From: Oscillospiraceae bacterium
GTDB lineage: Bacteria > Bacillota > Clostridia > Oscillospirales > Acutalibacteraceae
Direction: 5' to 3'
Length of the DNA: 64,000 nucleotides
Assembly (NCBI GenBank): GCA_015065685.1
Contig: SVPU01000003.1
Location: 1 to 64,000 of the forward strand
The notes beneath the pieces were generated by a model. The model made no database searches. It saw only the letters and a program-made list of their open reading frames with translations, and was not told the DNA's origin. The position numbers and the translations under genes were made by a program. Shown piece by piece: positions 15,668 through 33,492 of the stretch. The stretch's first letter is position 1; every line of letters starts with the position of its first letter.

Positions 15668-15682
15668 ACGGCGCACCTTCTT

Positions 15683-15726
15683 TTAACAGTTTTTGTTATC
15701 ATAACATAAAATAATTTTTAAATCAA
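15683..15726. promoter_or_regulatory. Overlapping divergent promoters, AraC1 / deaminase
   Basis: Plus strand: TTAACA (15683–15688), 18-bp spacer, TAAAAT (15707–15712). Minus strand: TTGATT (complement of 15721–15726), 17-bp spacer, TATGAT (complement of 15698–15703). The small palindrome GTTAT.ATAAC at about 15695–15705 covers both. One bound regulator could set the balance between the two genes. Confidence 0.6.
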
Positions 15727-15745
15727 CATTTTTGGGGAGGAAATT

Positions 15746-16561: not shown

Positions 16562-16574
16562 AGGAGATTAGGTT

Positions 16575-18517: not shown

Positions 18518-19810
18518 TTAATTAGTTATTTTCTTTAAAGCTTCTTTAAAGTTTTTGGTTAACTTTTCGTTTATGCCTTTCTTAAACGGTCCTATAAGAC
18601 CATATTCAACATGGCATTCGGCTTCGTAACCACCCTCTTGTAAAACCTTATCGTCCGGCACATAGGCGCAGGCATCGGTATAGCCGATAAAACAGGTGTC
18701 ATAGTCCTTGAGAGCTTCTTTAACCGTTTTCTTTATCCCGTAGCAAGGCTCACCGCCAATAGTTGCAATTAAGAATTCGGGGGTTAATTTTATAATCTGG
18801 CAGTAAAGGTCCATACTCTTTTCTAACTTTTCATAGCCGCCGTTTGCTATAAGCTCGGAGTTTGTGATGGGTGCACTATGGCCTTGACCTTTATAGAATT
18901 CCCACTCTTTTTGGAAAAGAGATAAAGGCGCGGGGTCCATTTCTAATACTGTTACAAATTCATCGGCTGAAACTGAAAGATCGCTTGTTTTCATAGAGTC
19001 CGACTCTACGATTTTTCCAACCTCTTCACACATACTTGCGGCAAAATTATCAATATCGGCAAAGGTCATCGATTTCCAACCGAAGCTGCCATCATCATTT
19101 TTATTAACAGTGGGTGCAGGTCGCACATCTCCGCCTGCTGATTGGAAGTATAAGGCGGTACAACCGCTGTACTTTGTTTCAAGGTGCTGACACACTCTTG
19201 CGGGGAATTCACCGCTAATGATTTGCTGAGCGGGGTAGAAAACAGGATGGCACGCATAGTTCACAAGAGCCGCTTTGATATTGCCGTTTGTATCTTTCAC
19301 GCACAAAACAAAAAGCTCGGTATCGTGCTCATAATTAAAGTTGGGGCAATTATCGTATTTTCCATTTATAATACCTCGACGACTTATGTTCAAGTCAACA
19401 TCTGCTCTTCCGTATTCAAGTTTCCCCTCAAACATTGAAACAAACGCTCTGTCGATACAGTCCTTACCGCGCTCAATTAAAAATTCCTCGTATTCATCAG
19501 TATGATACCCTGGGTTATATCCTTTAACTGCGGGTGCTGTGTGAGCGTGTGTGTAAGAAACACAAACCGCATCTTTGTTTATTCCGTATTTTTTGAATGC
19601 ATAGTCCTTTAAAGCGTTATTAAGACTACGGTCATGGAAAAGCAAATCAAAAGACATTGTAATAGCTTTATTGGCACCGTCATCAAAAATGATGCATCTG
19701 CAATAAACATCATCGTGAATAGTTATAAAATCAAGTTCGCATTTTCCGCAACAGGCAACCTTGGTTTTGCATTTGGGGGTAATTATTTCTTTTGCTACAC
19801 CAAACTTCAT
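18518..19810 (-). CDS. Neutral/alkaline ceramidase-like amidase
   Basis: About 430 residues. The neutral-ceramidase N-terminal domain is recognisable: SYTHAHTAPA (about 85–94), NYACHPV (184–190) and SAGGDVRP (224–231), which in the family supply zinc ligands and the active-site serine region. It is shorter than secreted ceramidases, lacks a signal peptide and lacks the C-terminal Ig-like domain, so it is probably cytoplasmic and acts on another amide. AGGATGG supports ATG at 19810 over 19822. It is transcribed away from AraC2 and shares its 38-bp control site with the amino-sugar operon. Confidence 0.75.
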   Translation of the reverse strand: MKFGVAKEIITPKCKTKVACCGKCELDFITIHDDVYCRCIIFDDGANKAITMSFDLLFHDRSLNNALKDYAFKKYGINKDAVCVSYTHAHTAPAVKGYNPGYHTDEYEEFLIERGKDCIDRAFVSMFEGKLEYGRADVDLNISRRGIINGKYDNCPNFNYEHDTELFVLCVKDTNGNIKAALVNYACHPVFYPAQQIISGEFPARVCQHLETKYSGCTALYFQSAGGDVRPAPTVNKNDDGSFGWKSMTFADIDNFAASMCEEVGKIVESDSMKTSDLSVSADEFVTVLEMDPAPLSLFQKEWEFYKGQGHSAPITNSELIANGGYEKLEKSMDLYCQIIKLTPEFLIATIGGEPCYGIKKTVKEALKDYDTCFIGYTDACAYVPDDKVLQEGGYEAECHVEYGLIGPFKKGINEKLTKNFKEALKKITN

Positions 19811-19860
19811 ATAAAACACCATCCTATAAGTTATATTCTACATCAAATAGTAAAAAAAGC

Positions 19861-20031: not shown

Positions 20032-20913
20032 ATGCGAAATCAAGCGAAAGCATATAAAAGGTTTACATTCAAAGATGAAAACCTCAAAATAATACAAAGA
20101 ATAAATTCAACCTCTTTTATAAACACTGCCGAGGAGTATTCAAGCGACTTTCACGAGGAGATTGAAATAAAATTTTTCTTCGAGGGCAGCTCCACCTTGA
20201 TTATAGGGGAGGAGAACATTGTAACCGAGCCGGGCGATGTTATTTTCATTAACCCTTATGAGTTTCACACCACCGTGGGATTTAAAGAGAAAAAGGGTAA
20301 ATACCATCTGCTTATGGTGGGACTCGATTTTTTCAAGGATGAAAACCGCGACCTGCTTGATTTGAGGTATTTATTCATAAAAGAGCATACCACAATAAAG
20401 CATCTTATAAGAGGAAATAAAAGAATTGCAGCCATAATTTCGCAAATTATGACCGAGCTTAACGAAGGCGACGAAATGTATGAGCAGATGATAAGAGGGC
20501 TATTATTAGAGCTCTTTGTTCTGCTCTTGCGAGATTATAAATTCACAACCACCCTTAATTATCTCAACGATAAAAAAATCAGAAATTACGAGCTGATATA
20601 TCCCGCAATAAGAAGAATAAGAACCGATTACCTTTCAAGACCGAGTATTGAAGAATTATCAAATATGTGTGGGGTAAGCAAATATCATTTTTGCAGAATT
20701 TTCAAAAAAGCAACCGATATGACGGTTGTGCAATATCAGAATGAATTCAGGCTTAGAATAGCCGACACCCTTTTGAAAACGAGCGATAAAAACATAAGAG
20801 AGATAGCCGAGAGTTGCGGATTCGATGATGTGAGTTATTTTAGCAGGTGCTATAAGAACAAATTTGGAGAATCTCCGCTTAAAAGCAGGTCAAAAAAACG
20901 CAATAATCAATAA
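20032..20913 (+). CDS. AraC-family transcriptional regulator 2 of the amino-sugar operon
   Basis: A 293-residue activator-type protein. The N-terminal cupin (about 25–110) has the usual FHEEIEIKFFFEG start and EPGDVIFINPYEFH turn. The C-terminal HTH pair (about 190–290) contains PSIEELSNMCGVSKYHFCRIF and then REIAESCGFDDVSYFSRCYKN. It lies between two copies of the same 38-bp site, one serving the ceramidase-like gene on the minus strand and one the operon from 21005, so it very probably controls both in response to a sugar bound in the cupin. Confidence 0.9.
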   Translation: MRNQAKAYKRFTFKDENLKIIQRINSTSFINTAEEYSSDFHEEIEIKFFFEGSSTLIIGEENIVTEPGDVIFINPYEFHTTVGFKEKKGKYHLLMVGLDFFKDENRDLLDLRYLFIKEHTTIKHLIRGNKRIAAIISQIMTELNEGDEMYEQMIRGLLLELFVLLLRDYKFTTTLNYLNDKKIRNYELIYPAIRRIRTDYLSRPSIEELSNMCGVSKYHFCRIFKKATDMTVVQYQNEFRLRIADTLLKTSDKNIREIAESCGFDDVSYFSRCYKNKFGESPLKSRSKKRNNQ

Positions 20914-20916
20914 AAT

Positions 20917-20981
20917 GAGCAATATTGTCCAAAAAAATATCAATGTAGTGCATTGATATTTTTTTATTTATGCAGTAAAAT
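20917..20981 (+). promoter_or_regulatory. Control site B and promoter of the amino-sugar operon
   Basis: The 38-bp match to site A is 20917–20954. It runs into a palindrome with 15-bp arms around TAGTG (20931–20965). TTGATA (20953–20958), 17-bp spacer and TAAAAT (20976–20981) form the promoter, so the site touches the -35 box, a usual place for an AraC activator. The palindrome plus T run could also end the araC2 transcript. Confidence 0.75.
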
Positions 20982-21004: not shown

Positions 21005-21928
21005 GTGAAGAATGTTAAAAACACACCAAAAATTGATATTCACGCTCATGCGGTGGCATTCAGAGAATATTATCCGCCGCACTTTCCGGGTCAATATGAA
21101 TCTGTTTTTATTTCGGCAGAACAACTTATTGAATTTTATGATAAGTTAGGGGTTGAAAAGGGAATATTGCTCCCAATTTCTTCGCCCGAAGGGCAGGTTT
21201 CACCCATGACCAGTGAAGCGTGCAAATATTTGGTTGATAAGTACCCTAACAGGTTTGATTGGTTTTGCAATGTTGACCCAAGAGCCTTTCCAAACACCAA
21301 AGATGGTGATTTGGCACATCTTATAAGGCATTATAAATCACTCGGTGCTAAGGGCGTTGGTGAAATCACAGCTCACATTGCCGCAGATGACCCTAAGGTT
21401 GATAATCTTTTTTCTGCCTGTGAAGAATGTGATATGCCGGTGATTATACATATTTCTCCCACCTATGAATCGGGCTACGGTATATATGATGAAATGGGCC
21501 TTCCAAGACTTGAAAAAATGATAAAGAAGCATCCAAACCTTAAATTCTTGGGACATTCGCAGGCGTTCTGGACCGAGATAACAGGCGATATCAGAGAAGA
21601 AGACCGAATGGATAACCCCGAGCGCAAGATAACTGAGGGCGGTCGTGTTGTTGAACTTCTTCGTAAGTATCCGAATCTCTATTGCGACCTTTCTGCAAAC
21701 AGCGGTTCAAACGCTTTGATGCGCGATCCTGAGTTTGCGGTGAAATTTATCGAAGAATTTTCAGACCGTGTGATGTATGGCTGCGATATATGCCGCCCCA
21801 CAAACACCCATCCTTATCCCTTCAAAGAGTTTTTAGAAAAAATGCTGGATGAAGGAAAAATCAGCGCAGAAAATTATAAGAAGTTAGTTCGTGAGAATGC
21901 TATTCGCATTCTTAAATTGGAGGAATAA
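21005..21928 (+). CDS. Amidohydrolase family 2 metal-dependent hydrolase
   Basis: A 307-residue TIM-barrel enzyme of the amidohydro_2 (ACMSD-like) family. The metal motif is DIHAHA (His13, His15); VIIHISPTYE, LKFLGHSQAFW and the late VMYGCDICRPTN region carry the remaining ligand positions. Reactions in this family are hydrolysis or decarboxylation, and the substrate is not predictable. The start is GTG with GGAG 10 bases upstream; it is the first gene after control site B. The next gene starts 2 bp after its stop. Confidence 0.85.
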   Translation: MKNVKNTPKIDIHAHAVAFREYYPPHFPGQYESVFISAEQLIEFYDKLGVEKGILLPISSPEGQVSPMTSEACKYLVDKYPNRFDWFCNVDPRAFPNTKDGDLAHLIRHYKSLGAKGVGEITAHIAADDPKVDNLFSACEECDMPVIIHISPTYESGYGIYDEMGLPRLEKMIKKHPNLKFLGHSQAFWTEITGDIREEDRMDNPERKITEGGRVVELLRKYPNLYCDLSANSGSNALMRDPEFAVKFIEEFSDRVMYGCDICRPTNTHPYPFKEFLEKMLDEGKISAENYKKLVRENAIRILKLEE

Positions 21929-21930
21929 AT

Positions 21931-22710
21931 ATGCATGTTGTTATACTTACCGATTTAGAGGGAGTTTCCTGTGTTGATTCAATAGATATGATTCCTTACG
22001 CTAACGAGGGTTATAAAAAAGCGTGCGAATATTTAATGTATGATACAAATGCCGCGGTTGACGGTGCCTTCTTGGGCGGTGCCACAAAGGTTACTGTTAT
22101 TGATGGGCACGGCGGTGCAAATAATTTTATTATGGAATTGTTAGATAAGCGAGCAACCTATCTTCCTTGCAGGGAATTTTGCCGCGAGCCGATTGAAAAA
22201 TTCGGATTTGATGCTTTAATGTGCGTTGGAGCACACGCTATGGCGGGAACGGTTAATGCGTTTTTAGACCATACCGAAAGCTCAATTGAATGGTTTGAGT
22301 ATCTCATAAACGGAGTTCCGGGCGGCGAAATGGTGGCAGAGGCACACACCTTGGCGGCAGTAGGAGCGCCCTTTATTATGGCGAGCGGCGATGAGGCTGT
22401 TTGCAAAGAGGCAAAGGAATTGGTGCCAAACATTTCTGTGGCGGTTGTGAAAAAAGCAATTGGTCGCAACAAAGCCGAGTGTTTACCGCTTGAAAAGGCA
22501 ACCGAGCTTATAAGAAAAGCCGCAAAGGAAGCGGTTGAAAACTGCAGTGATATTAAACCAATTGAGCTAAAATTGCCTGCGGAAATTACAGTTACCTTCA
22601 CCCGTAACGATTATTGCGATGAGCATTTAGGCGAGGGTTTAGTTAGAAACGGCAGAACACTAACCAAGAAAATAAATAAAGTTGTTCGTTATACAGACTT
22701 ATTAATTTAA
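21931..22710 (+). CDS. M55-family D-aminopeptidase (DppA-like)
   Basis: A 259-residue zinc peptidase. It keeps the DppA ligands nearly position for position: Asp8 and Glu10 (LTDLEG), His60 (DGHGG), His102 (VGAHA) and Glu133 (GGEM), with His114 as the likely catalytic histidine. DppA removes N-terminal D-amino acids such as D-Ala from peptides and forms a decamer. Its place in an amino-sugar operon suggests a substrate with a D-amino acid amide, possibly from peptidoglycan; this is inference. GGAGGAATAA precedes the ATG. Confidence 0.88.
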   Translation: MHVVILTDLEGVSCVDSIDMIPYANEGYKKACEYLMYDTNAAVDGAFLGGATKVTVIDGHGGANNFIMELLDKRATYLPCREFCREPIEKFGFDALMCVGAHAMAGTVNAFLDHTESSIEWFEYLINGVPGGEMVAEAHTLAAVGAPFIMASGDEAVCKEAKELVPNISVAVVKKAIGRNKAECLPLEKATELIRKAAKEAVENCSDIKPIELKLPAEITVTFTRNDYCDEHLGEGLVRNGRTLTKKINKVVRYTDLLI

Positions 22711-22728
22711 TGAAAAGAGGAAAATTTT

Positions 22729-24051
22729 ATGTCAGAAAAATTAGCATTATTAGGTGGTAAACCTGCAATTGATGAAAAGCCCTATGAAGAGCTTTTTAAG
22801 TGGCCCATAATCACTGCAGAGGATGAAGCAGCTGCTATGGACGTTATCCGCAAAAACAGCTTCTCAGCAACAGATATCACAGAAAAATTTCAGGATGAAT
22901 TTGCAGAGTGGATGGGCAGAAAATATGCTATTGCTTACTGTAACGGCACAGCATCTTTAACTGCTGCAATGTTTGCAATCGGTCTTGGTAAGGGAGATGA
23001 AATTATTTGCCCCACCAAAACCTATTGGGGAAGCGTTTCGCAGGCAATCAACTTTGGTGCTTCTGCAGTTTTTTGTAATATTGATAACAATTTGAGTATG
23101 GACCCCGCAGATCTTGAGCGTTGTATTACTCCTAAAACAAAGGCTATAATGGTTGTTCACTATTATTCATATCCCTGTGATATGGACAAAATAATGGAAA
23201 TTGCCAATAAGCACAATCTTATTGTTATTGAGGATGTTTCTCATGCACAGGGCGTTGTTTATAAGGGCAAAAAGGTGGGAACCTTTGGTCATATTGCTGC
23301 TATGTCTCTTATGAGTGGTAAGGCTTTTGCTGCAGGTGAGCTTGGTATCCTTGTTACTGATGACACAAAGCTTTATGAACGCGCAATGGCTTTCGGTCAT
23401 TATGAGCGTAACAACGAAAACTATATTAAGGAAAGCGATGATTTAAAGGATTATTTCCATATCGCTCTTGGCGGCATCAAGGGAAGAGCAAATCAACTTT
23501 GCGCTGCCCTCGCTCGCGGTCAGCTTAAATATTATGATGAGCGCACAGCAGAAATTCGCAAGGCTATGAATTATTTCTGGGATTTACTCGAAGGAGTTCC
23601 CGGTATTCGCTCAATCCGTGTTAACGAAGAAGAAGGCTCGCATATGGGTGGTTGGTATTCACCTCACGGCATATATATTCCCGAAGAGCTCGGCGGTCTT
23701 TCGGTTAAGAAATTCTGCGAGGCACTTCGCGCAGAGGGTGTTGAAGCTTGGGAAGGCGGAAACTTCTGCTTACATACCCATAAATTCTTCAAGACCTTTG
23801 ACTTTGACCATTCAGGCGCGCCTTCAAGAATTGCGTATAACGACAGGGATGTTCGCCTTGATGATGATAAGTGTAAGCCATCTGAGAGTATTTATTGCTA
23901 CTCTGTTCCGTGGTTTAAGAAGTTTGACAAGGAATGGATAGAAAAATATGCTAATGCCTTTAAGAAGGTAGTTGACAACTACGAGCAGTTATTAGAGGGC
24001 GATGAAAAAGGCGCTCAGGGCGGCAGATGGTACGGAATGGAAAACGCATAA
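22729..24051 (+). CDS. DegT/DnrJ/EryC1/StrS sugar aminotransferase 1
   Basis: A 440-residue fold-type I PLP enzyme. The PLP lysine is Lys198 in LMSGKAFAAGELG and the pyridine-binding Asp169 lies in IEDVSHAQG. The family adds or removes an amino group at a keto-sugar carbon, using glutamate or glutamine. About 30–40% alike by eye to the paralogue at 28909, sharing the EKLALxGG start. A Gfo/Idh oxidoreductase follows, the usual partner that makes the keto group. AAGAGGA precedes the ATG. Confidence 0.92.
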   Translation: MSEKLALLGGKPAIDEKPYEELFKWPIITAEDEAAAMDVIRKNSFSATDITEKFQDEFAEWMGRKYAIAYCNGTASLTAAMFAIGLGKGDEIICPTKTYWGSVSQAINFGASAVFCNIDNNLSMDPADLERCITPKTKAIMVVHYYSYPCDMDKIMEIANKHNLIVIEDVSHAQGVVYKGKKVGTFGHIAAMSLMSGKAFAAGELGILVTDDTKLYERAMAFGHYERNNENYIKESDDLKDYFHIALGGIKGRANQLCAALARGQLKYYDERTAEIRKAMNYFWDLLEGVPGIRSIRVNEEEGSHMGGWYSPHGIYIPEELGGLSVKKFCEALRAEGVEAWEGGNFCLHTHKFFKTFDFDHSGAPSRIAYNDRDVRLDDDKCKPSESIYCYSVPWFKKFDKEWIEKYANAFKKVVDNYEQLLEGDEKGAQGGRWYGMENA

Positions 24052-24079
24052 TTCTAAACTTTTTATAGGGTGTGATAAA

Positions 24080-25084
24080 ATGTCCAACAAGGTAAGATTC
24101 GCAATTGTAGGTTGCGGAATGATTGCCGATTTTCATGCAAAGGCTATAAAAAGTCTTGAATCGGCAGAGTTGGTTGGCGCGGTGGACAGTTTTCCGAAAA
24201 ATTTAAACGCTTTTTGCGAGAAATACGATATAAAGGCGTTTGACAGTTTTGATGAGGTTATAGCTAGTGAGGGTGTGGATGCGGTTTGCATCTGCACCCC
24301 TAGTGGCTTTCATGCAAAGCAGGCTATAGAGGCTCTTAAAAACGGAAAACACGTGGTTATTGAAAAACCAATGGCATTAAATACAGAAGATGCAGACAAA
24401 ATTATTGCAGAGTGCGAAAAGAGCAATTGTTTGTTAACAGTTATTTCTCAACTTCGATTTACCGAAGGTGTTCAAAAAATAAAATCACTCATTGAAGAAA
24501 ACGCTTTCGGTAAAATAGCACTTTGCGATTTATATATGAAATATTGGAGAAGCCCCGATTATTATAAGGGCGGCGGTTGGAAGGGCAGTAAGGCTCTTGA
24601 CGGTGGCGGTGCGCTTATGAATCAGGGTATTCACGGAATTGATATTATTCAGTATATGGTTGGTGAAGCCGAACTTTTGCACGGAAAAACCGAGACTGTT
24701 TTCCACGATATTGAGGTGGAAGATTTGGCGGTTGCAACCGTTAAGTATCCTTGTGGTGCAGTTGGTGTTATTGAAGGCACCACCTGTTGTTATCCTGGCT
24801 TCGAGAGAAGAATTGAAATTCTCGGCAGTAACGGTTGTGCAGTATTAAACGAGGGTATCATTGAAAAACTCGTTATAAACGGTGAAGATGTTACCGAAAA
24901 GAAGCAGGAAGAACAAAGACCTTCAACCGCAAATGATCCTTCGGCTATGAGTTACAAGCTTCACGCTATGCAGATAGAAAATTTTGTTAATGCGATAAAC
25001 GGAAAAGAAAAGCTGCTGATTGATGCTAAGGCAGGCAAGGTGGCAGTGAAGCTTATAGAGGATATTTATAATTTCAACAAGTGA
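24080..25084 (+). CDS. Gfo/Idh/MocA oxidoreductase 2
   Basis: A 334-residue sugar oxidoreductase. The NAD(P) loop is AIVGCGMIADFHA and the family lysine lies in IEKPMA (about residue 98). The C-terminal half contains GGGALMNQGIHGIDIIQY, where the histidine and aspartate pair are typical substrate ligands. The start at 24080 is set by AGGGTGTGAT; an in-frame ATG at 24002 lies inside the previous gene. It probably oxidises a hydroxyl of a sugar for the neighbouring aminotransferase. Confidence 0.9.
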   Translation: MSNKVRFAIVGCGMIADFHAKAIKSLESAELVGAVDSFPKNLNAFCEKYDIKAFDSFDEVIASEGVDAVCICTPSGFHAKQAIEALKNGKHVVIEKPMALNTEDADKIIAECEKSNCLLTVISQLRFTEGVQKIKSLIEENAFGKIALCDLYMKYWRSPDYYKGGGWKGSKALDGGGALMNQGIHGIDIIQYMVGEAELLHGKTETVFHDIEVEDLAVATVKYPCGAVGVIEGTTCCYPGFERRIEILGSNGCAVLNEGIIEKLVINGEDVTEKKQEEQRPSTANDPSAMSYKLHAMQIENFVNAINGKEKLLIDAKAGKVAVKLIEDIYNFNK

Positions 25085-25101
25085 TTTTGGAGGAAGAAAG
25101 T

Positions 25102-25983
25102 ATGTTTAGAATAGGAATTATAGGAACTGAAAATTCACACTGCCATCATTTTATTAATGTTTTCAACAAACCCGATGAAAACGGAAAATTCCGTTATCCC
25201 GATTGCCGCGTAACATTGGTTTACGGTCATTACGCGGAAGAAAACAAACGCGCAGTTGAAGAACTCGGCGCAGAAAAAGTTGCTGAAAGCATTGAAGAGA
25301 TGGTTGCTAATGTTGATGCGGTTATGGTTACCGCACGCGATGGCAAATTTCATTATGAATTCGTAAAACCCTTTATTGAGGCAGGTATTCCTGCATTTAT
25401 TGATAAGCCTTTCACAGTAGACCCCGAAGAAGCAGTTGCTTTAGTGAAATTGGCAAAGGAAAAGAATGTTGCCATTTGCGGTGGTTCTTCACTTAAGTTT
25501 GCCGATGGAATTATTGAACTTAAAAAGATAAGAGAAGAAAACAGCGATAAAATCAATAGCGGCAGCGTGGCTGCACCCCTTATTTTCAACAGTGAGTATA
25601 GCGGCATATTCTTCTATGCGCCGCACCTTACCGAAATGACCTTGGAGATTTTCGGCTATAATCCCAAGAAAATTTTTGCGGTTGAGAAAAACGGCGGAAT
25701 TTGTGCTATTGTGAGCTATGATGACTTTAATATTTCCAATCATTTTAACGCAAACGGACCTCATTATTCTGCAGGTGTTTATACCCACGGCGGAATATAC
25801 AACAAGAATATTGACCCTTCAACTTGCGGAGATGTTGAGTGCAAAGATTTTGTTAATATGCTAAGAACAGGTAAATCTTCTCAAACCTACCGCCAACTCG
25901 TAATGCCTGTTTATTATATGAACGCTTTGAAGAAGTCTTATGAAACAGGCGAATGGGTAGATATTAATTGCGAAATTGAATAA
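25102..25983 (+). CDS. Gfo/Idh/MocA oxidoreductase 3 (short type)
   Basis: A 293-residue member, shorter than most. It begins RIGIIGTENSHCHHF, where the loop glycines are spaced unusually and histidines replace the common Ala/His run; IDKPFT (about residue 96) keeps the family lysine. The C-terminal beta domain is reduced. Substrate unknown. TGGAGGA (about 25089–25095) sets the ATG at 25102. It sits between oxidoreductase 2 and the NagB-like gene. Confidence 0.85.
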   Translation: MFRIGIIGTENSHCHHFINVFNKPDENGKFRYPDCRVTLVYGHYAEENKRAVEELGAEKVAESIEEMVANVDAVMVTARDGKFHYEFVKPFIEAGIPAFIDKPFTVDPEEAVALVKLAKEKNVAICGGSSLKFADGIIELKKIREENSDKINSGSVAAPLIFNSEYSGIFFYAPHLTEMTLEIFGYNPKKIFAVEKNGGICAIVSYDDFNISNHFNANGPHYSAGVYTHGGIYNKNIDPSTCGDVECKDFVNMLRTGKSSQTYRQLVMPVYYMNALKKSYETGEWVDINCEIE

Positions 25984-25997
25984 AGGAAAGACAAAAT

Positions 25998-26759
25998 ATG
26001 AAAACAGTAATCAAAGACAATTTAAAAGTTGAAATTTATGAAACTCGCAAAGAAATGGGCGCGGCTGCGGCAAAACTTGCGGCAGAAAAATTGAGAGAAT
26101 GCCTTAAAGAAAAAGAAAAAGTAAATGTTATCTTTGCGGCGGCACCCTCACAAAATGAAACACTCGAATCCCTCATAAACGAAGAGGGAATTGACTGGAG
26201 TCGCGTTAACGCTTTTCATATGGATGAATATATCGGTCTCTCGGCTGATGCGCCCCAAGGTTTTGGAAACTTCCTTAAAGAGCATATATTCGACAGACTT
26301 CCCTTTGGCAGTGTTAACTGTATAAACTGTCAGGCAGAGGACCCCAAAGAAGAATGTGCACGATACACAAAACTTTTAGAGGAAAATGTTGTTGATATTG
26401 TGCTTTTGGGAATAGGCGAGAACGGACACATCGCATTTAACGACCCCCACGTTGCAGATTTCAACGATACTGCATTGGTTAAGGTGGTAAGCCTTGATGA
26501 TGTTTGCCGTCAACAACAGGTAAATGACGGTTGCTTTAAGGCTATTGATGATGTCCCGAAATTTGCTTTAACACTCACAATTCCTGCCCTCACAAGAGCA
26601 AAGCATATGGTTTGCACCGTTCCTGCGGCTACAAAGGCTTGGGCAGTCGGCAGAACTGTTAACGGTGAAATAAGCGAAGAATGTCCTGCAACTATTATGA
26701 GAAAGCACGACAGCGCAGTAATGTTCTGCGATAGCGACAGTGGGAGAGATTTGCTTTGA
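25998..26759 (+). CDS. Glucosamine-6-phosphate deaminase family protein (NagB-like 2)
   Basis: A 253-residue NagB-type isomerase. Asp76 lies in FHMDEYIGL and His144 in GIGENGHIAFNDP. Glu of the classical FNEP is Asp149 here, a conservative change at a residue that helps His in ring opening. It lacks the allosteric C-terminal residues of E. coli NagB, as in Gram-positive enzymes. Its TGA overlaps the TTG start of the NagA-like gene, a strong sign the two act in sequence on one amino-sugar phosphate. Confidence 0.85.
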   Translation: MKTVIKDNLKVEIYETRKEMGAAAAKLAAEKLRECLKEKEKVNVIFAAAPSQNETLESLINEEGIDWSRVNAFHMDEYIGLSADAPQGFGNFLKEHIFDRLPFGSVNCINCQAEDPKEECARYTKLLEENVVDIVLLGIGENGHIAFNDPHVADFNDTALVKVVSLDDVCRQQQVNDGCFKAIDDVPKFALTLTIPALTRAKHMVCTVPAATKAWAVGRTVNGEISEECPATIMRKHDSAVMFCDSDSGRDLL

Positions 26760-27913
26760 TTACTAAAATTTCAAAGGGAAAAATCATTTTAGAAGATAGA
26801 GTTTTAGAAGGAAGTAATGTTTATATAGATGACGGTGTTATTAAAGCCGTTACAACCGATGAACTTGAGTTTGACAAAGAGATAAACGCCGAGGGATATT
26901 ATGTATCCCCGGGGTTTATTGATTTGCATCTTCACGGCGCGGCAGACGGTGATTTTTCTAATGCTTCGGTTGAAGAAAATATTGCGGCCGTGAATTATCA
27001 TTGTAAACACGGAACAACCTCGCTTTTCCCCACAACACTTTCGGTATCCTTTGAGGGCTTAATGGCTTCTCTTGATGCTATGAGAGAAACAATGCAAAGC
27101 GATAAGACTTTTCTGAATATATGCGGAGTTCACTTGGAGGGACCTTATTTCTCGCAAAATCAGAGTGGGGCACAAAATAAGGATTTCATCACCCCGCCAA
27201 TTAAAGAGGATTACGATAGAATTCTCGAAAAACACGGCGATATTATAAGCCGTTGGAGCTTTGCCCCTGAAAACGAGGGTAGCATTGAGTTTGTGGAAAC
27301 CCTCGAAAAGCATAATGTTATTCCATCTATTGCACATAGCGATGCAAAGTATGATGATGTGATGCGGGTTTACGAAAAGGGCTGCAAGCTTATAACCCAT
27401 TTTTATTCTTGTATTTCAAGTATAACTCGTGAAAAAGGCTTCAGAAAGCTCGGTATTATGGAATGCGGCTATTTGCTCGATGATATGGATATCGAAATTA
27501 TCGCAGATGGTTGCCATGTACCTAAAGAGCTATTTAAGCTTGCACTCAAAATTAAAACAAGCGATAATATTTGTCTTGTAACCGATGCGATGAGCTGCTG
27601 CGGTAGTGATAAAACGATTTCCTCGCTTGGCGGAGTGCCTTGTAAAATCAAAAGCGGTGTGGCTTATCTTATGGATGAATCCGCCTTTGCGGGTAGTATT
27701 GCCACGACTGACAGATTGGTAAGATTCTGCGTTAAAGAAGCAGGGCTTAGTATCTTTGAAGCGGTTAAAATGATAACTGTTAACCCTGCAAGAGTTATGA
27801 AGCTTAGCAAAAAAGGTAAAATTGCCGCAGGGTATGATGCCGATATATTACTTTTTGATGATGATATAAATATTAAAAAAGTTATAGTTGGCGGAAAGGA
27901 GGCGGCTTTATGA
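26756..27913 (+). CDS. N-acetyl amino-sugar-6-phosphate deacetylase (NagA-like 2)
   Basis: A 385-residue deacetylase. Ligand positions match NagA 1: His58/His60 (DLHLHG), Glu128 (HLEGPY), His194 (AHSDAKYD), His215 (THFYSCI) and Asp277 (VTDAMS). The substrate loop HFYSCISSITREKGFR differs from the HLFNAMTPLAHRAPG of classical NagA, so another N-acyl amino sugar is likely. TTG start with GGGAG nine bases upstream; it overlaps both neighbours by four bases. Confidence 0.85.
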   Translation: MITKISKGKIILEDRVLEGSNVYIDDGVIKAVTTDELEFDKEINAEGYYVSPGFIDLHLHGAADGDFSNASVEENIAAVNYHCKHGTTSLFPTTLSVSFEGLMASLDAMRETMQSDKTFLNICGVHLEGPYFSQNQSGAQNKDFITPPIKEDYDRILEKHGDIISRWSFAPENEGSIEFVETLEKHNVIPSIAHSDAKYDDVMRVYEKGCKLITHFYSCISSITREKGFRKLGIMECGYLLDDMDIEIIADGCHVPKELFKLALKIKTSDNICLVTDAMSCCGSDKTISSLGGVPCKIKSGVAYLMDESAFAGSIATTDRLVRFCVKEAGLSIFEAVKMITVNPARVMKLSKKGKIAAGYDADILLFDDDINIKKVIVGGKEAAL

Positions 27914-28884
27914 ATATAGCATTTGCAGGTCTTAGACACGGGCATATATTCGCTCTTTATGACCAAGCCGTTAATAACCCTTATTTTAATGTTTGCGGTG
28001 CTTTTGAAGAAAACAACGAAGCAAGACAAGTGGCAGAACAAAAAAGCGTTAAATTCGGTTACAAAAGTTATGAAGAGTTACTCGCGGATGACTTGGTTGA
28101 TGTTGTTGCTTTAGGCGGTTGTTACGGCGACCGCGGTCAAATGGCTATAAAAGCGTTAAAGTGCGGTAAACACGTTATTGCGGATAAACCTTTGTGCATT
28201 AGTACCGATGAATTAAACCAAATTGAAAAGGCCGCAAAGGAAAATAACCGACTTGTCAGCGTTATGTTTACAATGCGCTTTGAACCTAAAATAAATGCCG
28301 TTAAAAAGTTGGTTGAGAGCGGCGTTTTGGGTGAAATAAACAATGTTTATTTTGGTGGTCAGCATCCGCTTCAATATGGCAGACGACCAATGTGGTATTT
28401 CGAAAACGGAAAACACGGCGGCGTTATCAATGATATTGCAATTCACGGAATAGATATTTTAAATTATGCTTTAGGGATTAAAGTTAAGGACATTTTATCT
28501 GCAAGATGCTGGAATAAATTTGCAGAAAGTGAGCCTGAATTTAAAGATAGTGCTCAGTTTATGCTCACAGCAGAAAACGGTGCGGGAGTTGTTTCGGATG
28601 TTTCTTATGCTATTCCCGACGGTGTTGAATTTGCACTTCCCTTTTATTGGCAGTTTTATATTTGGGGAACAAACGGCACTTTGCGTTTCTCTCTTGGAGA
28701 TGAAAAGATAGAGTACTACATAAAGGGAGATGCAAACCCCCATATTTTAGAAGAAGCACCCGTTACCGAGTATCTTACTGATTTTTACCGTTTATTAAAC
28801 GGCGAAAAAGATATAATTTTACCGATGCAAGATGTTTTAAGTGCAACAAGAGCAACACTTAAAATTCAAGAAGCGGCTATTTAA
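27910..28884 (+). CDS. Gfo/Idh/MocA oxidoreductase 4
   Basis: A 324-residue oxidoreductase starting MNIAFAGLRHGHIFALY, with ADKPLC as the family lysine motif (near residue 95) and GGVINDIAIHGIDILNY as the substrate-site stretch. The nucleotide loop again carries RHGH rather than the usual sequence, as in oxidoreductase 3. AAAGGAGG precedes the ATG, which overlaps the nagA-like stop. It precedes the second aminotransferase, repeating the oxidoreductase/aminotransferase pairing. Confidence 0.88.
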   Translation: MNIAFAGLRHGHIFALYDQAVNNPYFNVCGAFEENNEARQVAEQKSVKFGYKSYEELLADDLVDVVALGGCYGDRGQMAIKALKCGKHVIADKPLCISTDELNQIEKAAKENNRLVSVMFTMRFEPKINAVKKLVESGVLGEINNVYFGGQHPLQYGRRPMWYFENGKHGGVINDIAIHGIDILNYALGIKVKDILSARCWNKFAESEPEFKDSAQFMLTAENGAGVVSDVSYAIPDGVEFALPFYWQFYIWGTNGTLRFSLGDEKIEYYIKGDANPHILEEAPVTEYLTDFYRLLNGEKDIILPMQDVLSATRATLKIQEAAI

Positions 28885-28908
28885 TTTTTTAGAAAGAAGG
28901 AATTTATT

Positions 28909-30228
28909 ATGGCAGAAAAACTAGCATTATTTGGTGGCGAAAAAGTAGTAGGAGATGTTCAATGTCAGCTCCCTTTAGTTGCGCCTGAAACTTATGATGT
29001 GGTAAAAGAACTTATGCAAAAAGATGAGATTTCAACATCTCCCATCGTTAACAAGTTTGAAAAGAAATTTGCAGATTACATAGGCGTTGATTACGGCCTT
29101 TGCTGTGTTAACGGTACCACTTCAATTCAAGCGGGTCTTTTCGCAGTGGGCGTTGGCGCAGGTGATGAGGTTATCGTTCCTTCGTTCACATTCTGGGCAA
29201 CTGTAGGTCCTGTTGCAGCAGCAAACGCAATCCCCGTTTTTGCTGATGTTGATGAAGATACCCATACTCTGACCGCAGCAGATATTGAAAAGCATATAAC
29301 ACCTAGAACAAAGGCAATCCTCGTTGTTCACGTTTGGGGAAATCCTTGCGATATGGATCCTATTATGGAGCTTGCAAAAAAGCACAATTTAAAGGTTGTT
29401 GAAGACTGTTCACACGCTCACGGTGCCACATATCACGGCAAAAAGGTTGGTAGTATCGGCGATGTTGGTTGTTTCTCAATGCAGGGTTCTAAAGTTCTCG
29501 CAGCAGGTGAGGGCGGCATTCTTGTTACAAATAACCGCGAATATTTTGAGCGCGCTTGTGCACTCGGCCATTATGAGAGATTAGGCGGATTCCCCGATGG
29601 TTCAGAATATAAAAAATTCGCTCTTACAGGCTTTGGTTATAAGCACAGAATTCATCCTCTCGCAGTTGCTATTGCAGACGGAAACCTCAACAGACTTGAT
29701 GAATTAAACAAAAACAGAACAAAGGGCGCACTTTATTTAGAAGAACTTATTTCCGACCTTGATTTTATTAAACCTTTGAAAACTTTTGATGATAGCGAGA
29801 GGGTTTTTGCTTATCATTATGCGCAGTATATTCCCGAAAAATTAAAGGGCCTTTCGGTTATAACCTTCCTTAAAGCGCTTGCTGCTGAAGGTGTTTATTG
29901 CGGAAGCTGCGGTTACGGAAAGTTGCATCAGTCACCTTTCTATAACGGCGAAGGTCCTTTTGGTAAAGGTTGTCCTTTCGCTTGTCCGCACTATGCCGAG
30001 AAATATGTTCCCACACAGGTACTCGAAGTTACCGAGAAACTTGCTAAAAATTCAGTAATGATTGCGCCAAGATTTGAAATTGATAACAAAGAAGTTGTTG
30101 AGCAATACGCAAAGGCTTACCATAAGGTATATGAAAATATTGATGAACTTCTTAAATACGAAGAAGAAAACAATCTCGCAGAGAAAAAGATTGTAAATGA
30201 CGGAAGAAGTATCAACGTATTCCGTTAA
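28909..30228 (+). CDS. DegT/DnrJ/EryC1/StrS sugar aminotransferase 2
   Basis: A 439-residue PLP enzyme with Lys195 in MQGSKVLAAGEGG and Asp166 in VEDCSHAHG. The Ser-before-Lys (GSK) and the C-terminal EKYVPTQVLEVTEK part differ from paralogue 1, so the two probably act on different carbons or in opposite directions. AAGAAGGA precedes the ATG. The next gene begins 32 bp later without a terminator. Confidence 0.92.
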   Translation: MAEKLALFGGEKVVGDVQCQLPLVAPETYDVVKELMQKDEISTSPIVNKFEKKFADYIGVDYGLCCVNGTTSIQAGLFAVGVGAGDEVIVPSFTFWATVGPVAAANAIPVFADVDEDTHTLTAADIEKHITPRTKAILVVHVWGNPCDMDPIMELAKKHNLKVVEDCSHAHGATYHGKKVGSIGDVGCFSMQGSKVLAAGEGGILVTNNREYFERACALGHYERLGGFPDGSEYKKFALTGFGYKHRIHPLAVAIADGNLNRLDELNKNRTKGALYLEELISDLDFIKPLKTFDDSERVFAYHYAQYIPEKLKGLSVITFLKALAAEGVYCGSCGYGKLHQSPFYNGEGPFGKGCPFACPHYAEKYVPTQVLEVTEKLAKNSVMIAPRFEIDNKEVVEQYAKAYHKVYENIDELLKYEEENNLAEKKIVNDGRSINVFR

Positions 30229-30260
30229 GATAAACTGACTTTTAGTTTAGGGTGGTAAAT

Positions 30261-31733
30261 ATGAAGTATAAAATTATTCCAAAAAGAAAAGAGAATCATA
30301 TTGTTTCGAAATATTTGCATTCTGTATTTTTTGAATATTTCGGCAAGGTGATTTATGACGGTATCTGGGTTGGCAAGGATAGCGAAATCGAGAATATTGA
30401 CGGTATCCGCAAGGATGTTATTGACGGTTGCCGTGAACTCGGTGTTGGCGCAATGCGTTGGCCCGGAGGTTGCTGTGCCGACTATTATCATTGGAAAAAC
30501 GGTATAGGAAAAGAAAGATTTGCAAAGATACATTCTGAATGTGACCCTGCGAACCCATATTTCAGAAATGATTTCGGTACAGATGAGTTTTTGCGTTTTT
30601 GCGAACTTACGGGCGCGGACCCCGTAATCACTGTTAACACCGCAACAGGCACACCAGAAGAATTTGCCGATTGGTATGAATATGTTAACGCTCCAACCTT
30701 CACAAAGTACGGTGCTTTAAGAGCCGAAAACGGCCACCCCGAGCCTTACAATGTAAAGTTTTGGGGTCTTGGAAATGCGGATGCTAATGTTTGGGACGGT
30801 GACTATAACAATCCCAACGGATATGCTCAGACATATTTGAAATTCCAAACAACCTTGCTTCTCCAAAGAAAAGACCTTAAATTTATAGGGCTTGGATTAT
30901 CTACAAGACACAAAATGCCCGGTTGGGCAGGAAAAGCGTTGGATTATATAACGCATAACCAACGCAGCAAGGCTCCCGATGCGCTTTCGATTCACCATTA
31001 TCTTGGCGGTGCAAAACAAAACGGTGGCGATTGTGGAGATGCAGTTGATTATACAGATAAAGGATATTACAAACTGCTTGATTTGTTGGAACGCTATCAA
31101 TATGATATTGATTTACACAGAACAATCATAAGAGAGCACACACCCGAAAATTCGGGAACAAAGATCTGCTTTGATGAATGGGGCGCTTGGCATCCGGAGG
31201 CTACTCCTGCGGCAAATCTGCATCAGCGCCAAACTATGCGCGATGCTATTTTTGCGGCTCTTACTATGCATATTTTTTACCGCAACTCAGATATCGTTGA
31301 GTTTGCAATGGAAACACAACTTTCAAACCTGCTTCAAAGTCTGTTTGAAACCGATGGCGCAAAGTTCTTTAAAACTCCGACATTCTATGTTATGAAACTG
31401 TTTAAAGAGCATTTGGGACAAACTCTAATCCATGTTTTGCCAGATGATATCGATGAAGATTTGGACACAGTTGCAACAATTTCTGAAGATGAAAAGCAGA
31501 TGACAATCAGTATTATTAACCGTCATTTATATGATGCTAAGGAAGTTACTTTCAATCTTCCTGATGGTTGGAAAGTGGTTAAATCCGATATTGTGACTTG
31601 CGATGATGTTCGTGCCATTAATACTTTTGAAGACCCCGAACGCATCAGCGAGAGTGAATTTACAGTGCCCGAATCTTTAAACTTTGCAGTCCCGAAACAT
31701 AGTGTGGTACGAATTTGTTTAAAAAAGGATTAA
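30261..31733 (+). CDS. GH51-family alpha-L-arabinofuranosidase-like protein lacking the usual acid/base Glu
   Basis: A 490-residue cytoplasmic protein with a (beta/alpha)8 barrel and a C-terminal beta domain as in GH51. MRWPGGCCADYYHWKNGIG and the nucleophile motif FDEWGAW (Glu306) are kept. The acid/base motif, normally GNE, reads FWGLGNADAN with Ala173. GCG differs from GAG by one base, so this may be a true loss or a sequence error. Other GH51 motifs (SIHHYLGG) are intact. Start set by TTAGGGTGG before ATG at 30261. Last but one gene of the operon. Confidence 0.82.
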   Translation: MKYKIIPKRKENHIVSKYLHSVFFEYFGKVIYDGIWVGKDSEIENIDGIRKDVIDGCRELGVGAMRWPGGCCADYYHWKNGIGKERFAKIHSECDPANPYFRNDFGTDEFLRFCELTGADPVITVNTATGTPEEFADWYEYVNAPTFTKYGALRAENGHPEPYNVKFWGLGNADANVWDGDYNNPNGYAQTYLKFQTTLLLQRKDLKFIGLGLSTRHKMPGWAGKALDYITHNQRSKAPDALSIHHYLGGAKQNGGDCGDAVDYTDKGYYKLLDLLERYQYDIDLHRTIIREHTPENSGTKICFDEWGAWHPEATPAANLHQRQTMRDAIFAALTMHIFYRNSDIVEFAMETQLSNLLQSLFETDGAKFFKTPTFYVMKLFKEHLGQTLIHVLPDDIDEDLDTVATISEDEKQMTISIINRHLYDAKEVTFNLPDGWKVVKSDIVTCDDVRAINTFEDPERISESEFTVPESLNFAVPKHSVVRICLKKD

Positions 31734-31738
31734 TTTAA

Positions 31739-32758
31739 ATGAAAAGTTTAGTTATAACAGGGGACAGTCTTTCTTACAATCGTTACGGATATGATGAAAT
31801 CCCAAGAAATGATGCTTGGAATTGCCATATTGGTATGCAGTCCTGGAGCTTCAGATTGCGCAATCTGTTTTTAACCTCTGCCGAGGGCTTTAAATATGCT
31901 GATGAGCTGCAGTTTGAAGAAGAAAACGTTTCGGGTCTCGGTGAAAATTGCAACCTGCAAGACGCCATTTTCGGCGAAAGGGTAAAAACTATAATTCCAA
32001 AGAATGATAAAATTCATTTTTCTGCCGAATCCAACAATGGAAAATTGGTCCTTTATTTTCAAAAACGCCCTAAAAATTATTGCAGATTTAAGATTTCAGT
32101 TGATGGCGTTTGTAATGAAAATATAATTGACACAAACGGTGAAGACGGTTTTTATCAAGGCTGGAGTATTTTGAGTATAGAGGTTTCGTGCGATAAAAAC
32201 CGAAATCTGCACGATGTGGTTTTATTTGATTTTGAATATACCGAATTTACCCCACTCGTTACACTGGCAGGTGTTAGCTGCGAGGCTAAAAACGCAGCTG
32301 TAACGGGTCAAGGCAGCAGAACTGCGAAGTTTATTAATTATCATTATGATGAGCGCATAAGAAAGTATAACCCCGACAAGCTTATAATTATATTCGGCGG
32401 AAATGACTGTATTCGTTACGGAACACAAGAATATAAAGCCAACTTGGAGAGCATTTTGGGGAAGGTTAAAACCGATTTTCCAAGTTGTGAAATTCTTGGC
32501 ATCACAATACCGCCTTCAAGACTTTATACGGGGGATGCTAACGGCAAAAGATTTACCTCCCAAGAAGCGTGGAACGATTATATTGATGAATATAATGCTG
32601 TTTTCAAGGAAACCTTTAAAAAATATGGCGCAGAAATCATTGAAACGGCCAAGGTTTTCGAAGGCATTCCAACTGAAAAGTGGAGATTTGATGAGGTTCA
32701 TATGACAACGTTTGGAAATGATCTGCTTTTTGATGCGGTCTGCAAAAAAATATTCTAA
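31739..32758 (+). CDS. SGNH/GDSL-type esterase
   Basis: A 339-residue two-domain hydrolase. Block I is TGDSLS (Ser10), block III GGND (about 218–221), and block V DEVH (Asp318, His321). Between about 60 and 170 is a jelly-roll-like beta insert, as in carbohydrate esterases of the CE2/SGNH type. No signal peptide, so it acts inside the cell, probably removing an acyl group from a sugar. AAAGGA in the end of the GH51 gene is its ribosome site. It ends the operon, and a terminator follows. Confidence 0.85.
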   Translation: MKSLVITGDSLSYNRYGYDEIPRNDAWNCHIGMQSWSFRLRNLFLTSAEGFKYADELQFEEENVSGLGENCNLQDAIFGERVKTIIPKNDKIHFSAESNNGKLVLYFQKRPKNYCRFKISVDGVCNENIIDTNGEDGFYQGWSILSIEVSCDKNRNLHDVVLFDFEYTEFTPLVTLAGVSCEAKNAAVTGQGSRTAKFINYHYDERIRKYNPDKLIIIFGGNDCIRYGTQEYKANLESILGKVKTDFPSCEILGITIPPSRLYTGDANGKRFTSQEAWNDYIDEYNAVFKETFKKYGAEIIETAKVFEGIPTEKWRFDEVHMTTFGNDLLFDAVCKKIF

Positions 32759-32853: not shown

Positions 32854-32896
32854 AACACTAAACAAAGCAGTGATTTTAAGAAATGAGGTAATAAAA

Positions 32897-33208
32897 ATGG
32901 CTGAACAGATAAATAATAATGAATATAATCCCGATATCGTAACCCTTACTGATGACAACGGAAAGGAATATACCTTTGAGGTGCTCGATGCAATTGAGAG
33001 CGACATGGGTCGTTATCTTGCGTTGCTTCCCACCTATGATAATCCCCAAAAGCTGCTCGAAGAAAGCGGCGAATTGGTTATAGTTAAGGTTGGCGAAGAA
33101 AACGGCGAGGAATATTTCTATGAAATCGAAGATGATGATGAATACGAAACCGTTGCCGATGCATTTGTTGACCGACTCGAAGAATTTTTCGAGATAGAGG
33201 ACAAATAA
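32897..33208 (+). CDS. DUF1292 family protein
   Basis: A 103-residue acidic protein of the DUF1292 family (YrzB-like), recognised by VTLTDDNGKEYTFEVLDAIE, then RYLALLPT and a strongly acidic YEIEDDDEYETVADAFVDRLEEFFE end. The family is widespread in Firmicutes and of unknown function, often beside ruvX (yrrK) and mgtE or rRNA-processing genes; here it stands alone before the 6S RNA gene. GAGGT precedes the ATG at 32897. Confidence 0.88.
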   Translation: MAEQINNNEYNPDIVTLTDDNGKEYTFEVLDAIESDMGRYLALLPTYDNPQKLLEESGELVIVKVGEENGEEYFYEIEDDDEYETVADAFVDRLEEFFEIEDK

Positions 33209-33405: not shown

Positions 33406-33451
33406 GCAGAATTTAAGTAAGAGTGAAAAGTGAATAGTGAAAAGGTAAAAT

Positions 33452-33485
33452 AAAAGGCCCTGAACCTCACCGTTCAGGGCCTTTT
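33452..33485. terminator. Bidirectional terminator between 6S RNA and a convergent gene
   Basis: AAAAGGCCCTGAAC, six-base loop, GTTCAGGGCCTTTT; T-rich on both sides. Before it (33421–33445) is a short AGTGAA-type direct repeat run. Confidence 0.85.
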
Positions 33486-33492
33486 GATATTT

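What the first reader, a model, noticed from the sequence alone, without database searches (positions are those of the whole stretch)
21005..32758. Eleven-gene amino-sugar/amide operon with no transporter or kinase
Seen: one co-directional run with short gaps and several 4-bp overlaps encodes an amidohydrolase, M55 D-aminopeptidase, two DegT aminotransferases, three Gfo/Idh enzymes, NagB-like, NagA-like, GH51-like and SGNH enzymes. Known: Gfo/Idh plus DegT convert a hydroxyl to an amino group via a keto sugar (as in kanosamine synthesis by NtdC/NtdA), and NagA/NagB deacetylate and deaminate. Inference: a route that builds or takes apart an unusual N-acyl amino sugar, perhaps linked to D-amino acids or peptidoglycan. 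I know no described pathway with this set.
Basis: partly seen in the sequence, partly recalled or inferred. Interest (0 to 1): 0.72.

Follow-up and report, generated by a model that had tools for sequence, protein, structure and literature searches.

The report
Gut bacterial amino-sugar breakdown operon
A run of eleven enzyme genes in an uncultured bacterium, with many relatives in the guts of grazing animals, looks like a regulated kit for taking apart an unusual amino sugar; parts of the same kit recur in dozens of relatives, but its exact food is unknown.

Summary
In detail: eleven co-directional cytoplasmic enzyme genes at 21005-32758 (three 4-bp overlaps, gaps up to 28 bp) after a co-directional AraC gene, with no transporter, kinase, glycosyltransferase, nucleotidyltransferase or N-acyltransferase. 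Related Clostridia often keep a core of AraC, amidohydrolase (AH2), DegT1 and Gfo1: in 80 DegT1 loci every AH2 (44 of 44), Gfo1 (32 of 32) and AraC (25 of 25) hit of at least 35% lies on DegT1's strand. Some add M55, Gfo2, Gfo3, NagA, NagB or GH51-like genes, and several add other sugar-cleaving genes. A neighbouring ceramidase-like gene probably belongs too. Best reading: catabolism, in which an amide hydrolase frees an amine, DegT swaps it for a keto group and a Gfo/Idh enzyme reduces that (WlbA/WbpE-like chemistry backwards), plus a NagA/NagB pair that duplicates ordinary copies elsewhere in the genome. Two oddities: the GH51-like clade lost its acid/base glutamate but kept its nucleophile (6 of 6, against 0 of 16 ordinary GH51), and the NagB subfamily has a rebuilt phosphate loop. 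The D-amino-acid/peptidoglycan idea is not supported. Substrate unidentified; direction inferred.

The parts
20032..20913 (+). AraC-family regulator, probable controller of the operon
   Evidence: Pfam HTH_AraC/HTH_18/AraC_binding; relatives at 35% or more lie on DegT1's strand in 25 of 25 hits
20953..20981 (+). promoter-like site between the AraC gene and the first enzyme gene
   Evidence: TTGATA-17-TAAAAT, 10 of 12; consensus match only
21005..21928 (+). AH2: amidohydrolase of PF04909; H13, H15, H184 and D261 invariant
   Evidence: Pfam; alignment A3 of 33 sequences; no PDB relative at E <= 0.001
21931..22710 (+). M55 (DppA-like) zinc peptidase/amidase
   Evidence: Pfam 192.9 bits; PDB 1hi9; putative metal ligands largely kept in the alignment of 11 (ligand roles recalled)
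22729..24051 (+). DegT1: DegT/DnrJ/EryC1/StrS aminotransferase, lysine K198 invariant
   Evidence: Pfam; alignment A1 of 18
24080..25084 (+). Gfo1: Gfo/Idh dehydrogenase; nearest solved structures are 3q2k and 3q2i (recalled as WlbA 3-dehydrogenases)
   Evidence: 171.4 and 165.9 bits over nearly the full length, next best 98
25081..25983 (+). Gfo2: short Gfo/Idh protein; relatives (31-46%) also neighbour NagA/NagB elsewhere
   Evidence: Pfam; L125, L127, L130 and L132
25998..26759 (+). NagB-like protein with an altered phosphate loop (FAAAPSQNE)
   Evidence: Pfam, below the NagB equivalog cut-off; alignments
26756..27913 (+). NagA-like deacetylase
   Evidence: TIGR00221 247.3 bits against cut-off 225.65; altered THLYNAM...REPG segment
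27910..28884 (+). Gfo3: Gfo/Idh dehydrogenase
   Evidence: Pfam; nearest PDB entries 3u3x and 2p2s are named only as oxidoreductases
28909..30228 (+). DegT2: second DegT aminotransferase
   Evidence: Pfam; in L242 a 70% relative lies between a ceramidase-like gene and a Gfo3 relative
30252..31733 (+). GH51-like protein without the acid/base Glu, nucleophile Glu kept (start may be 30261)
31739..32758 (+). SGNH/GDSL esterase
   Evidence: Pfam Lipase_GDSL_2, 51.4 bits against 32.9
18518..19822 (-). ceramidase-like protein (possible N-acyl amidase), divergent, just outside the operon; probably part of the system
   Evidence: weak Pfam hit below gathering (28.1 against 32.1 bits); 56% relative, divergent, beside Gfo1-DegT1-AraC in L161; 49% relative in a Cer-DegT2-Gfo3 run in L242
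33451..33486 (+). terminator-like hairpin downstream of a DUF1292 gene (32870-33208)
   Evidence: 15-pair stem

Best explanation
An AraC-controlled, cytoplasmic catabolic operon for an N-acylated amino-sugar conjugate that enters through a transporter encoded elsewhere. The SGNH esterase and the GH51-like enzyme trim O-acyl and glycosidic groups. An amide hydrolase (AH2, M55 or the neighbouring ceramidase-like protein) uncovers an amine that is not at C2. A DegT enzyme moves that amino group to a keto acid, leaving a keto sugar, and a Gfo/Idh enzyme reduces it to an ordinary hydroxyl. This is the chemistry of the WlbA/WbpB plus WbpE pathway (3-dehydrogenation, 3-amination) in reverse. NagA-like and NagB-like enzymes remove acetate and ammonia from C2 and deliver a ketose. 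Shown here: the gene content, the recurrence of the core and the residue changes. Inferred: the reaction direction, the order, the C3 position and the regulator's role. Not shown: the substrate, the transporter, and whether the NagA/NagB substrates carry a 6-phosphate.
For: Among 51 loci with at least 3 kb on both sides, 32 have a hit (any identity, E <= 1e-10) to AH2, M55 or Cer on the same strand within 4 kb, 26 one to a Gfo, 19 both; 0 of 16 NagB-centred control loci has such a hydrolase hit (one of the 16 has an AH2 hit about 6 kb away). Extended versions: L162 (AH2 twice, DegT1, M55 twice, GH51 68%, Gfo1, Gfo2, Gfo3, NagA, NagB, AraC), L151 and L146. Of nine DegT2-centred loci, L242 has Cer-DegT2-Gfo3, L243 AH2-DegT2, L248 Gfo2-AH2-DegT2-Gfo1. 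Sugar-cleaving neighbours in relatives: GH20 357 bp after NagB-NagA-Gfo3 (L047) and GH78 overlapping NagB (L049); SASA esterase and GH28-like (L162), melibiase (L161). Gfo1's nearest solved structures are 3q2k/3q2i (recalled as WlbA), and it has a 133-bit UDP-GlcNAc 3-dehydrogenase match below cut-off; the 3-dehydrogenase/3-aminotransferase pair is described in PMC10622841 (passages). DegT1's lysine is invariant. No signal peptides by hydropathy. No N-acyltransferase, nucleotidyltransferase or glycosyltransferase in the operon.
Against: Homology does not give direction: DegT and Gfo/Idh enzymes are mostly known from biosynthesis (recalled). 19 of the 51 well-flanked DegT1 loci have no same-strand hit to these hydrolases within 4 kb and 25 none to a Gfo; for DegT1 below 64% identity only 6 of 17 have a hydrolase. 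WbpE is not among the 20 PDB hits of DegT1 at E <= 1e-30 and ranks only 21st of 47 for DegT2; the PDB entry actually named wbpB (3o9z) is a distant hit of Gfo1 (54.8 bits). Gfo1's best NCBIfam match is inositol 2-dehydrogenase (147 bits, cut-off 355), and L222 has an inositol-type block directly upstream of the core, so aminocyclitols remain possible. Other flanking ORFs were very mixed: of 91 scanned, no glycoside hydrolase family is among the 25 families shown of 118, and GNAT acetyltransferases occur in two. The GH51-like protein has lost a catalytic residue and may not be a hydrolase at all.
Confidence: 0.5

Rival explanations
1. Biosynthesis: Gfo/Idh and DegT enzymes make a 3-amino (or diamino) sugar for the cell surface, as in the Wbp/Wlb or Gnn pathways, and the hydrolases recycle or edit it.
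For: Gfo1 resembles WlbA-type enzymes and both DegTs match biosynthetic sugar aminotransferases in the PDB; DegT enzymes are usually biosynthetic (recalled).
Against: No N-acyltransferase, nucleotidyltransferase, UDP-sugar 6-dehydrogenase, epimerase or glycosyltransferase in the operon. AraC regulator, esterase and glycosidase-like genes around. In the reverse scheme amide hydrolases are needed; in biosynthesis an acyltransferase is.
Confidence: 0.18
2. Aminocyclitol (inosamine-like) breakdown: DegT deaminates an amino-inositol, Gfo1 is an inositol-type dehydrogenase and AH2 opens a ring or lactone.
For: IolG is the top NCBIfam hit of Gfo1, though far below cut-off; scyllo-inosose-type aminotransferases are among the nearest PDB entries of both DegTs; in L222 an IolB/PfkB/aldolase block precedes DegT1-AraC-Gfo1-NagB.
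Against: NagA, NagB and GH20 partners point to hexosamines; in the window's own genome the matching block lies on another contig.
Confidence: 0.14
3. Ordinary GlcNAc-6-phosphate use: the NagA/NagB pair handles sugar phosphates made elsewhere and the other genes only share a promoter.
For: NagA passes the TIGR00221 cut-off; NagB keeps the key lysine and a hydroxyl residue of the phosphate site (contacts from PMC8369159).
Against: The genome has other copies: a higher-scoring NagA in the window at 9811-10953 (344 bits) and a NagB with the loop TGSSP on contig C4; the operon NagB is below the equivalog cut-off (131.8 against 236.9) and its loop is rebuilt.
Confidence: 0.13
4. D-amino-acid or peptidoglycan-fragment recycling, with M55 as the key enzyme.
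For: M55 is DppA-like.
Against: M55 at 35% or more occurs in only 9 of 80 loci; no muropeptide-type family in the operon; far below the DppA cut-off.
Confidence: 0.05

Closest known systems
Wbp/Wlb pathway to UDP-2,3-diacetamido-2,3-dideoxy-mannuronic acid (WlbA or WbpB, WbpE)
   Same: A Gfo/Idh 3-dehydrogenase and a PLP aminotransferase act as a pair (PMC10622841); Gfo1's nearest solved structures are 3q2k and 3q2i (recalled as WlbA)
   Different: No 6-dehydrogenase, N-acetyltransferase, epimerase or glycosyltransferase in the operon; WbpE is not among DegT1's PDB hits at E <= 1e-30
Nag catabolic pathway (NagA, NagB)
   Same: Adjacent, overlapping NagB-like and NagA-like genes
   Different: Rebuilt NagB phosphate loop, no kinase or PTS in the operon, other NagA and NagB copies elsewhere in the genome
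GH51 arabinofuranosidases
   Same: Similar over most of the length (2vrq, 230.6 bits) and nucleophile Glu kept
   Different: Acid/base Glu replaced by Ala (Thr in five relatives)
3-keto glycoside oxidation by the gut Gfo/Idh enzyme DgpA (PMC11239390, passages including part of the abstract)
   Same: A Gfo/Idh enzyme of a gut bacterium (Dorea sp.) that oxidises C3 of sugars in glycosides
   Different: DgpA acts on C- and O-glycosides such as puerarin; here DegT aminotransferases and amide hydrolases accompany the dehydrogenases
NtdABC kanosamine synthesis
   Same: DegT plus Gfo/Idh logic (recalled)
   Different: NtdA is a distant hit of DegT2 only (E 5.5e-30); no phosphatase family in the operon (NtdB as a phosphatase is recalled)

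Membership tests
Nag pathway (GlcNAc-6-phosphate) | NagA above the curated NagA cut-off | tested here: met
   TIGR00221 247.3 against 225.65 bits
Nag pathway (GlcNAc-6-phosphate) | NagB above the curated NagB cut-off | tested here: not met
   TIGR00502 131.8 against 236.9 bits
Nag pathway (GlcNAc-6-phosphate) | NagB 6-phosphate contacts | tested here: inconclusive
   Against SmuNagB (PMC8369159): Ser37 to Pro and Arg127 to Glu, but Thr38 to Ser and Lys194 kept, in 20 of 20 members aligned (Arg127 position read from the 2ri0 alignment; that 2ri0 is SmuNagB is recalled). Arg127 is not universal: Asn in E. coli, Leu in the own C4 copy
Nag pathway (GlcNAc-6-phosphate) | kinase or PTS in the operon | tested here: not met
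   Pfam of all eleven genes
Wbp/Wlb diamino-sugar biosynthesis | 3-dehydrogenase and aminotransferase pair | tested here: inconclusive
   Nearest PDB of Gfo1 is 3q2k/3q2i (identity as WlbA recalled, paper titles seen), but the entry named wbpB is distant (54.8 bits) and WbpE is absent from DegT1's hits at E <= 1e-30
Wbp/Wlb diamino-sugar biosynthesis | N-acetyltransferase and UDP-sugar enzymes | tested here: not met
   none in the operon
GH51 | catalytic nucleophile Glu | tested here: met
   6 of 6 clade sequences covering it
GH51 | acid/base Glu in GNE | tested here: not met
   0 of 6 clade sequences covering it; 16 of 16 ordinary GH51 have it (roles of the two Glu recalled)
DppA D-aminopeptidase | M55 family | tested here: met
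   Pfam 192.9 against 25 bits
DppA D-aminopeptidase | DppA equivalog score | tested here: not met
   106.5 against 430 bits
PLP sugar aminotransferase (DegT) | Schiff-base lysine rather than the histidine of dehydratases | tested here: met
   K198 invariant in 18 sequences; role recalled
Inositol dehydrogenase IolG | curated cut-off | tested here: not met
   147 against 355 bits for Gfo1

The most novel reading that the evidence does not exclude
A dedicated pathway that degrades 3-amino or 2,3-diamino sugars by running WlbA/WbpE-type reactions backwards (deacylate, transaminate, reduce), followed by a NagA/NagB pair that works on unphosphorylated or otherwise unusual amino sugars, and opened by a GH51-like enzyme that cleaves without a general acid/base, for instance a linkage with a good leaving group.
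Probability: 0.22. Interest if true: 0.75.

Novelty: new variant of a known kind. Interest (0 to 1): 0.52.

Why it matters
If right, gut bacteria have a catabolic logic for amino groups that the Nag route cannot reach: an amide hydrolase, an aminotransferase and a dehydrogenase used together. Diamino sugars occur in bacterial O-antigens (PMC10622841) and in some lipid A (abstract of PMC5644692 in the listing), and my searches listed no breakdown route for them. The cluster gives clear enzyme targets, and the GH51-like clade without an acid/base residue is a cheap and sharp biochemical test.

Tried and rejected
Peptidoglycan/D-amino-acid reading: dropped, M55 is optional (9 of 80 loci). Kanosamine reading: dropped, NtdA is distant. 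'Phosphate site of NagB lost': weakened after reading passages of PMC8369159, because Lys194 and a hydroxyl residue remain. 'No kinase at all': dropped, L222 has FGGY and PfkB kinases in the same-strand run, the own genome has matching genes on contig C16, and the window has a weak ROK hit at 10898-12319. Structure prediction of AH2 was asked five times and not accepted, so no fold was predicted and no fold search was made. Literature searches: (0 papers; 0; 0; 121 papers, 15 listed; 67, 15 listed; 14, 14 listed; 30, 15 listed; 4; 5), 84 (597, 12 listed); among those listed I saw no paper on such an operon. Only passages of PMC10622841, PMC11239390 and PMC8369159 were read. The library holds open-access papers only, so 'not described' is limited to it.

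Genome tallies include the window's own genome. The first gene maps mis-called some ORFs in some loci, so the counts rest on tblastn. The NagB-centred control (16 loci) is small and not matched by genome. Of 110 flanking ORFs I scanned 91, leaving out 19 short, end-truncated or doubtful ones by hand.
Full report
What is there. Eleven co-directional genes at 21005-32758 encode soluble enzymes, with gaps of 2 to 28 bp and three 4-bp overlaps. An AraC-type regulator gene precedes them on the same strand, 91 bp upstream, and a strong terminator-like hairpin follows a DUF1292 gene at 33451-33486. The window lies in a 1.48-Mb draft genome of 24 contigs. The 80 named carriers of close DegT1 relatives are titled almost throughout as Clostridia, Clostridiales, Clostridiaceae, Oscillospiraceae, Ruminococcaceae or other Bacillota MAGs, with one planctomycete; 36 of the 80 titles name a gut or rumen site of sheep, goat, deer, yak, water deer or water buffalo, one a chicken, and most of the rest name no source that I could read.

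Is it a real unit? DegT1 is a patchy subfamily: 7 of 150 genomes sampled in the family (E <= 1e-60) and 24 of 295 in the order (E <= 1e-110), the own genome included each time. In the 80 best named loci, relatives of at least 35% identity are found for AH2 in 36, Gfo1 in 31, AraC in 25, M55 in 9, NagA in 7, Gfo2 in 7, NagB in 6, Gfo3 in 5, GH51 in 2, DegT2 in 2 and the ceramidase-like gene in 1. All AH2 (44), Gfo1 (32), AraC (25), Gfo2 (7), NagB (6), Gfo3 (5) and GH51 (2) hits are on DegT1's strand; M55 is in 9 of 10, NagA in 5 of 7, DegT2 in 1 of 2 and Cer in 0 of 1. So the core is AraC, AH2, DegT1 and Gfo1, and a second block (Gfo2, Gfo3, NagA, NagB) is added in a few. L162, L151 and L146 carry much of the window's set in other orders. 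DegT2 relatives occur in 10 of 285 genomes of the order (E <= 1e-110). Of nine DegT2 loci fetched, one has Cer and Gfo3 (L242), one AH2 (L243), one AH2, Gfo2 and Gfo1 (L248), one Gfo1 (L249), one is a tandem array (L250), and four show no other window family at E <= 1e-8.

Which way does it run? Sequence families do not say. For breakdown speak: a hit to an amide hydrolase of one of three families lies on the same strand within 4 kb of DegT1 in 32 of 51 well-flanked loci, against 0 of 16 NagB-centred control loci (the control is small and not matched, and one of its loci has AH2 about 6 kb away); sugar-cleaving neighbours in several relatives; an AraC regulator; and the absence of acyltransferase, nucleotidyltransferase and glycosyltransferase genes in the operon. 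Against: 19 of 51 loci lack such a hydrolase hit, other flanking genes are mixed (91 of 110 ORFs scanned; two carry GNAT acetyltransferase domains), and biosynthesis is the better known role of DegT enzymes.

What chemistry? Gfo1's nearest solved structures are 3q2k and 3q2i (171 and 166 bits; the next is 98). The tool names them only oxidoreductase and dehydrogenase; I recall them as the WlbA enzymes of two bacteria, and the titles of the WlbA papers are in the reference list seen. WbpB oxidises C3 of a UDP-linked 2-acetamido sugar and WbpE aminates it (PMC10622841, passages). Against a close match: the PDB entry named wbpB (3o9z) is only a distant hit of Gfo1 (54.8 bits), WbpE is not among DegT1's 20 hits at E <= 1e-30, and it ranks 21st for DegT2. 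I lowered the probability of the novel case from 0.25 to 0.22 when I wrote these facts in. The reverse sequence, with an amide hydrolase first, would turn a 3-acylamino sugar into an ordinary sugar; that order is inference.

The NagA/NagB pair. The genome has a higher-scoring NagA at 9811-10953 in this window, a third on contig C16, and a NagB with the loop TGSSP on C4. The operon NagB belongs to a subfamily among the 73 of 290 genomes of the order that match at E <= 1e-40, a count that also includes ordinary NagBs at the weak end. All 20 subfamily members aligned have FAAAPSQ where E. coli NagB and the C4 copy have TGGTP and TGSSP, and Gly at the place of the arginine of NSRFF or NARFF (for that register; L151 and L162 have Lys there). 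Compared with the phosphate contacts given for SmuNagB (PMC8369159, passages), two are replaced and two are kept, so whether a phosphate is bound is open. The operon NagA differs from E. coli NagA in the THLYNAM-REPG segment; the role of that segment in phosphate binding is recalled.

The GH51-like protein. It is similar to GH51 over most of its length, but the acid/base Glu is Ala here and Thr in five relatives, while the nucleophile is kept in the six that cover it; 16 of 16 ordinary GH51 proteins of the order have both. The clade is rare: the own genome plus three in 290 of the order (51 to 74% identity; the other matches are at 31 to 37%), only the own genome in 299 of the phylum (E <= 1e-110), plus L162 and L175 among the named loci. 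In L175 it lies between AH2 and DegT1. What it cleaves, if anything, is unknown.

Verdict. A conserved amino-sugar operon family, not described in the listings I searched, most likely catabolic, with a coherent but untested chemistry and two testable catalytic oddities. The enzyme families are all known, so I call it a new variant of a known kind.

Noticed in passing
window 18518-19822 (-): Ceramidase-like gene, divergent from the operon, whose relatives lie near DegT/Gfo genes in L161, L194 and L242; proteins annotated as ceramidase-like also lie about 9 to 12 kb from the DegT1 relatives on two haloarchaeal plasmids.
   Followed up: partly
L074, L075, L250: Tandem arrays of DegT genes: three DegT1-like copies in two genomes and five DegT2-like copies in one.
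   Followed up: no
G000 contig C16 (L224, L226): Variant NagA next to GH123, then genes weakly like sulfoquinovose isomerase and GlcD (both far below cut-off), a Fer4 protein, class II aldolase, PfkB, IolB-like and FGGY-like genes; eight of these match the block before DegT1-AraC-Gfo1-NagB in L222 at 71-98% identity.
   Followed up: partly
G000 contig C4 (L225:5665-8396): NagB with the usual loop directly after an APH-type kinase-like gene and a nucleotidyltransferase gene, possibly an N-acetylhexosamine kinase route (the kinase role is a guess).
   Followed up: no
window 9811-12319: Higher-scoring NagA gene followed by a gene with a weak ROK-family hit, about 9 kb upstream of the operon.
   Followed up: no
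window 14768-17588: Divergent AraC gene, a 271-aa protein with no Pfam hit and another Gfo/Idh gene: possibly a second small sugar cluster.
   Followed up: no
L176:4737-6700: A further divergent NagA/NagB-like pair (37% to the operon's) upstream of AH2-Gfo1-DegT1.
   Followed up: no
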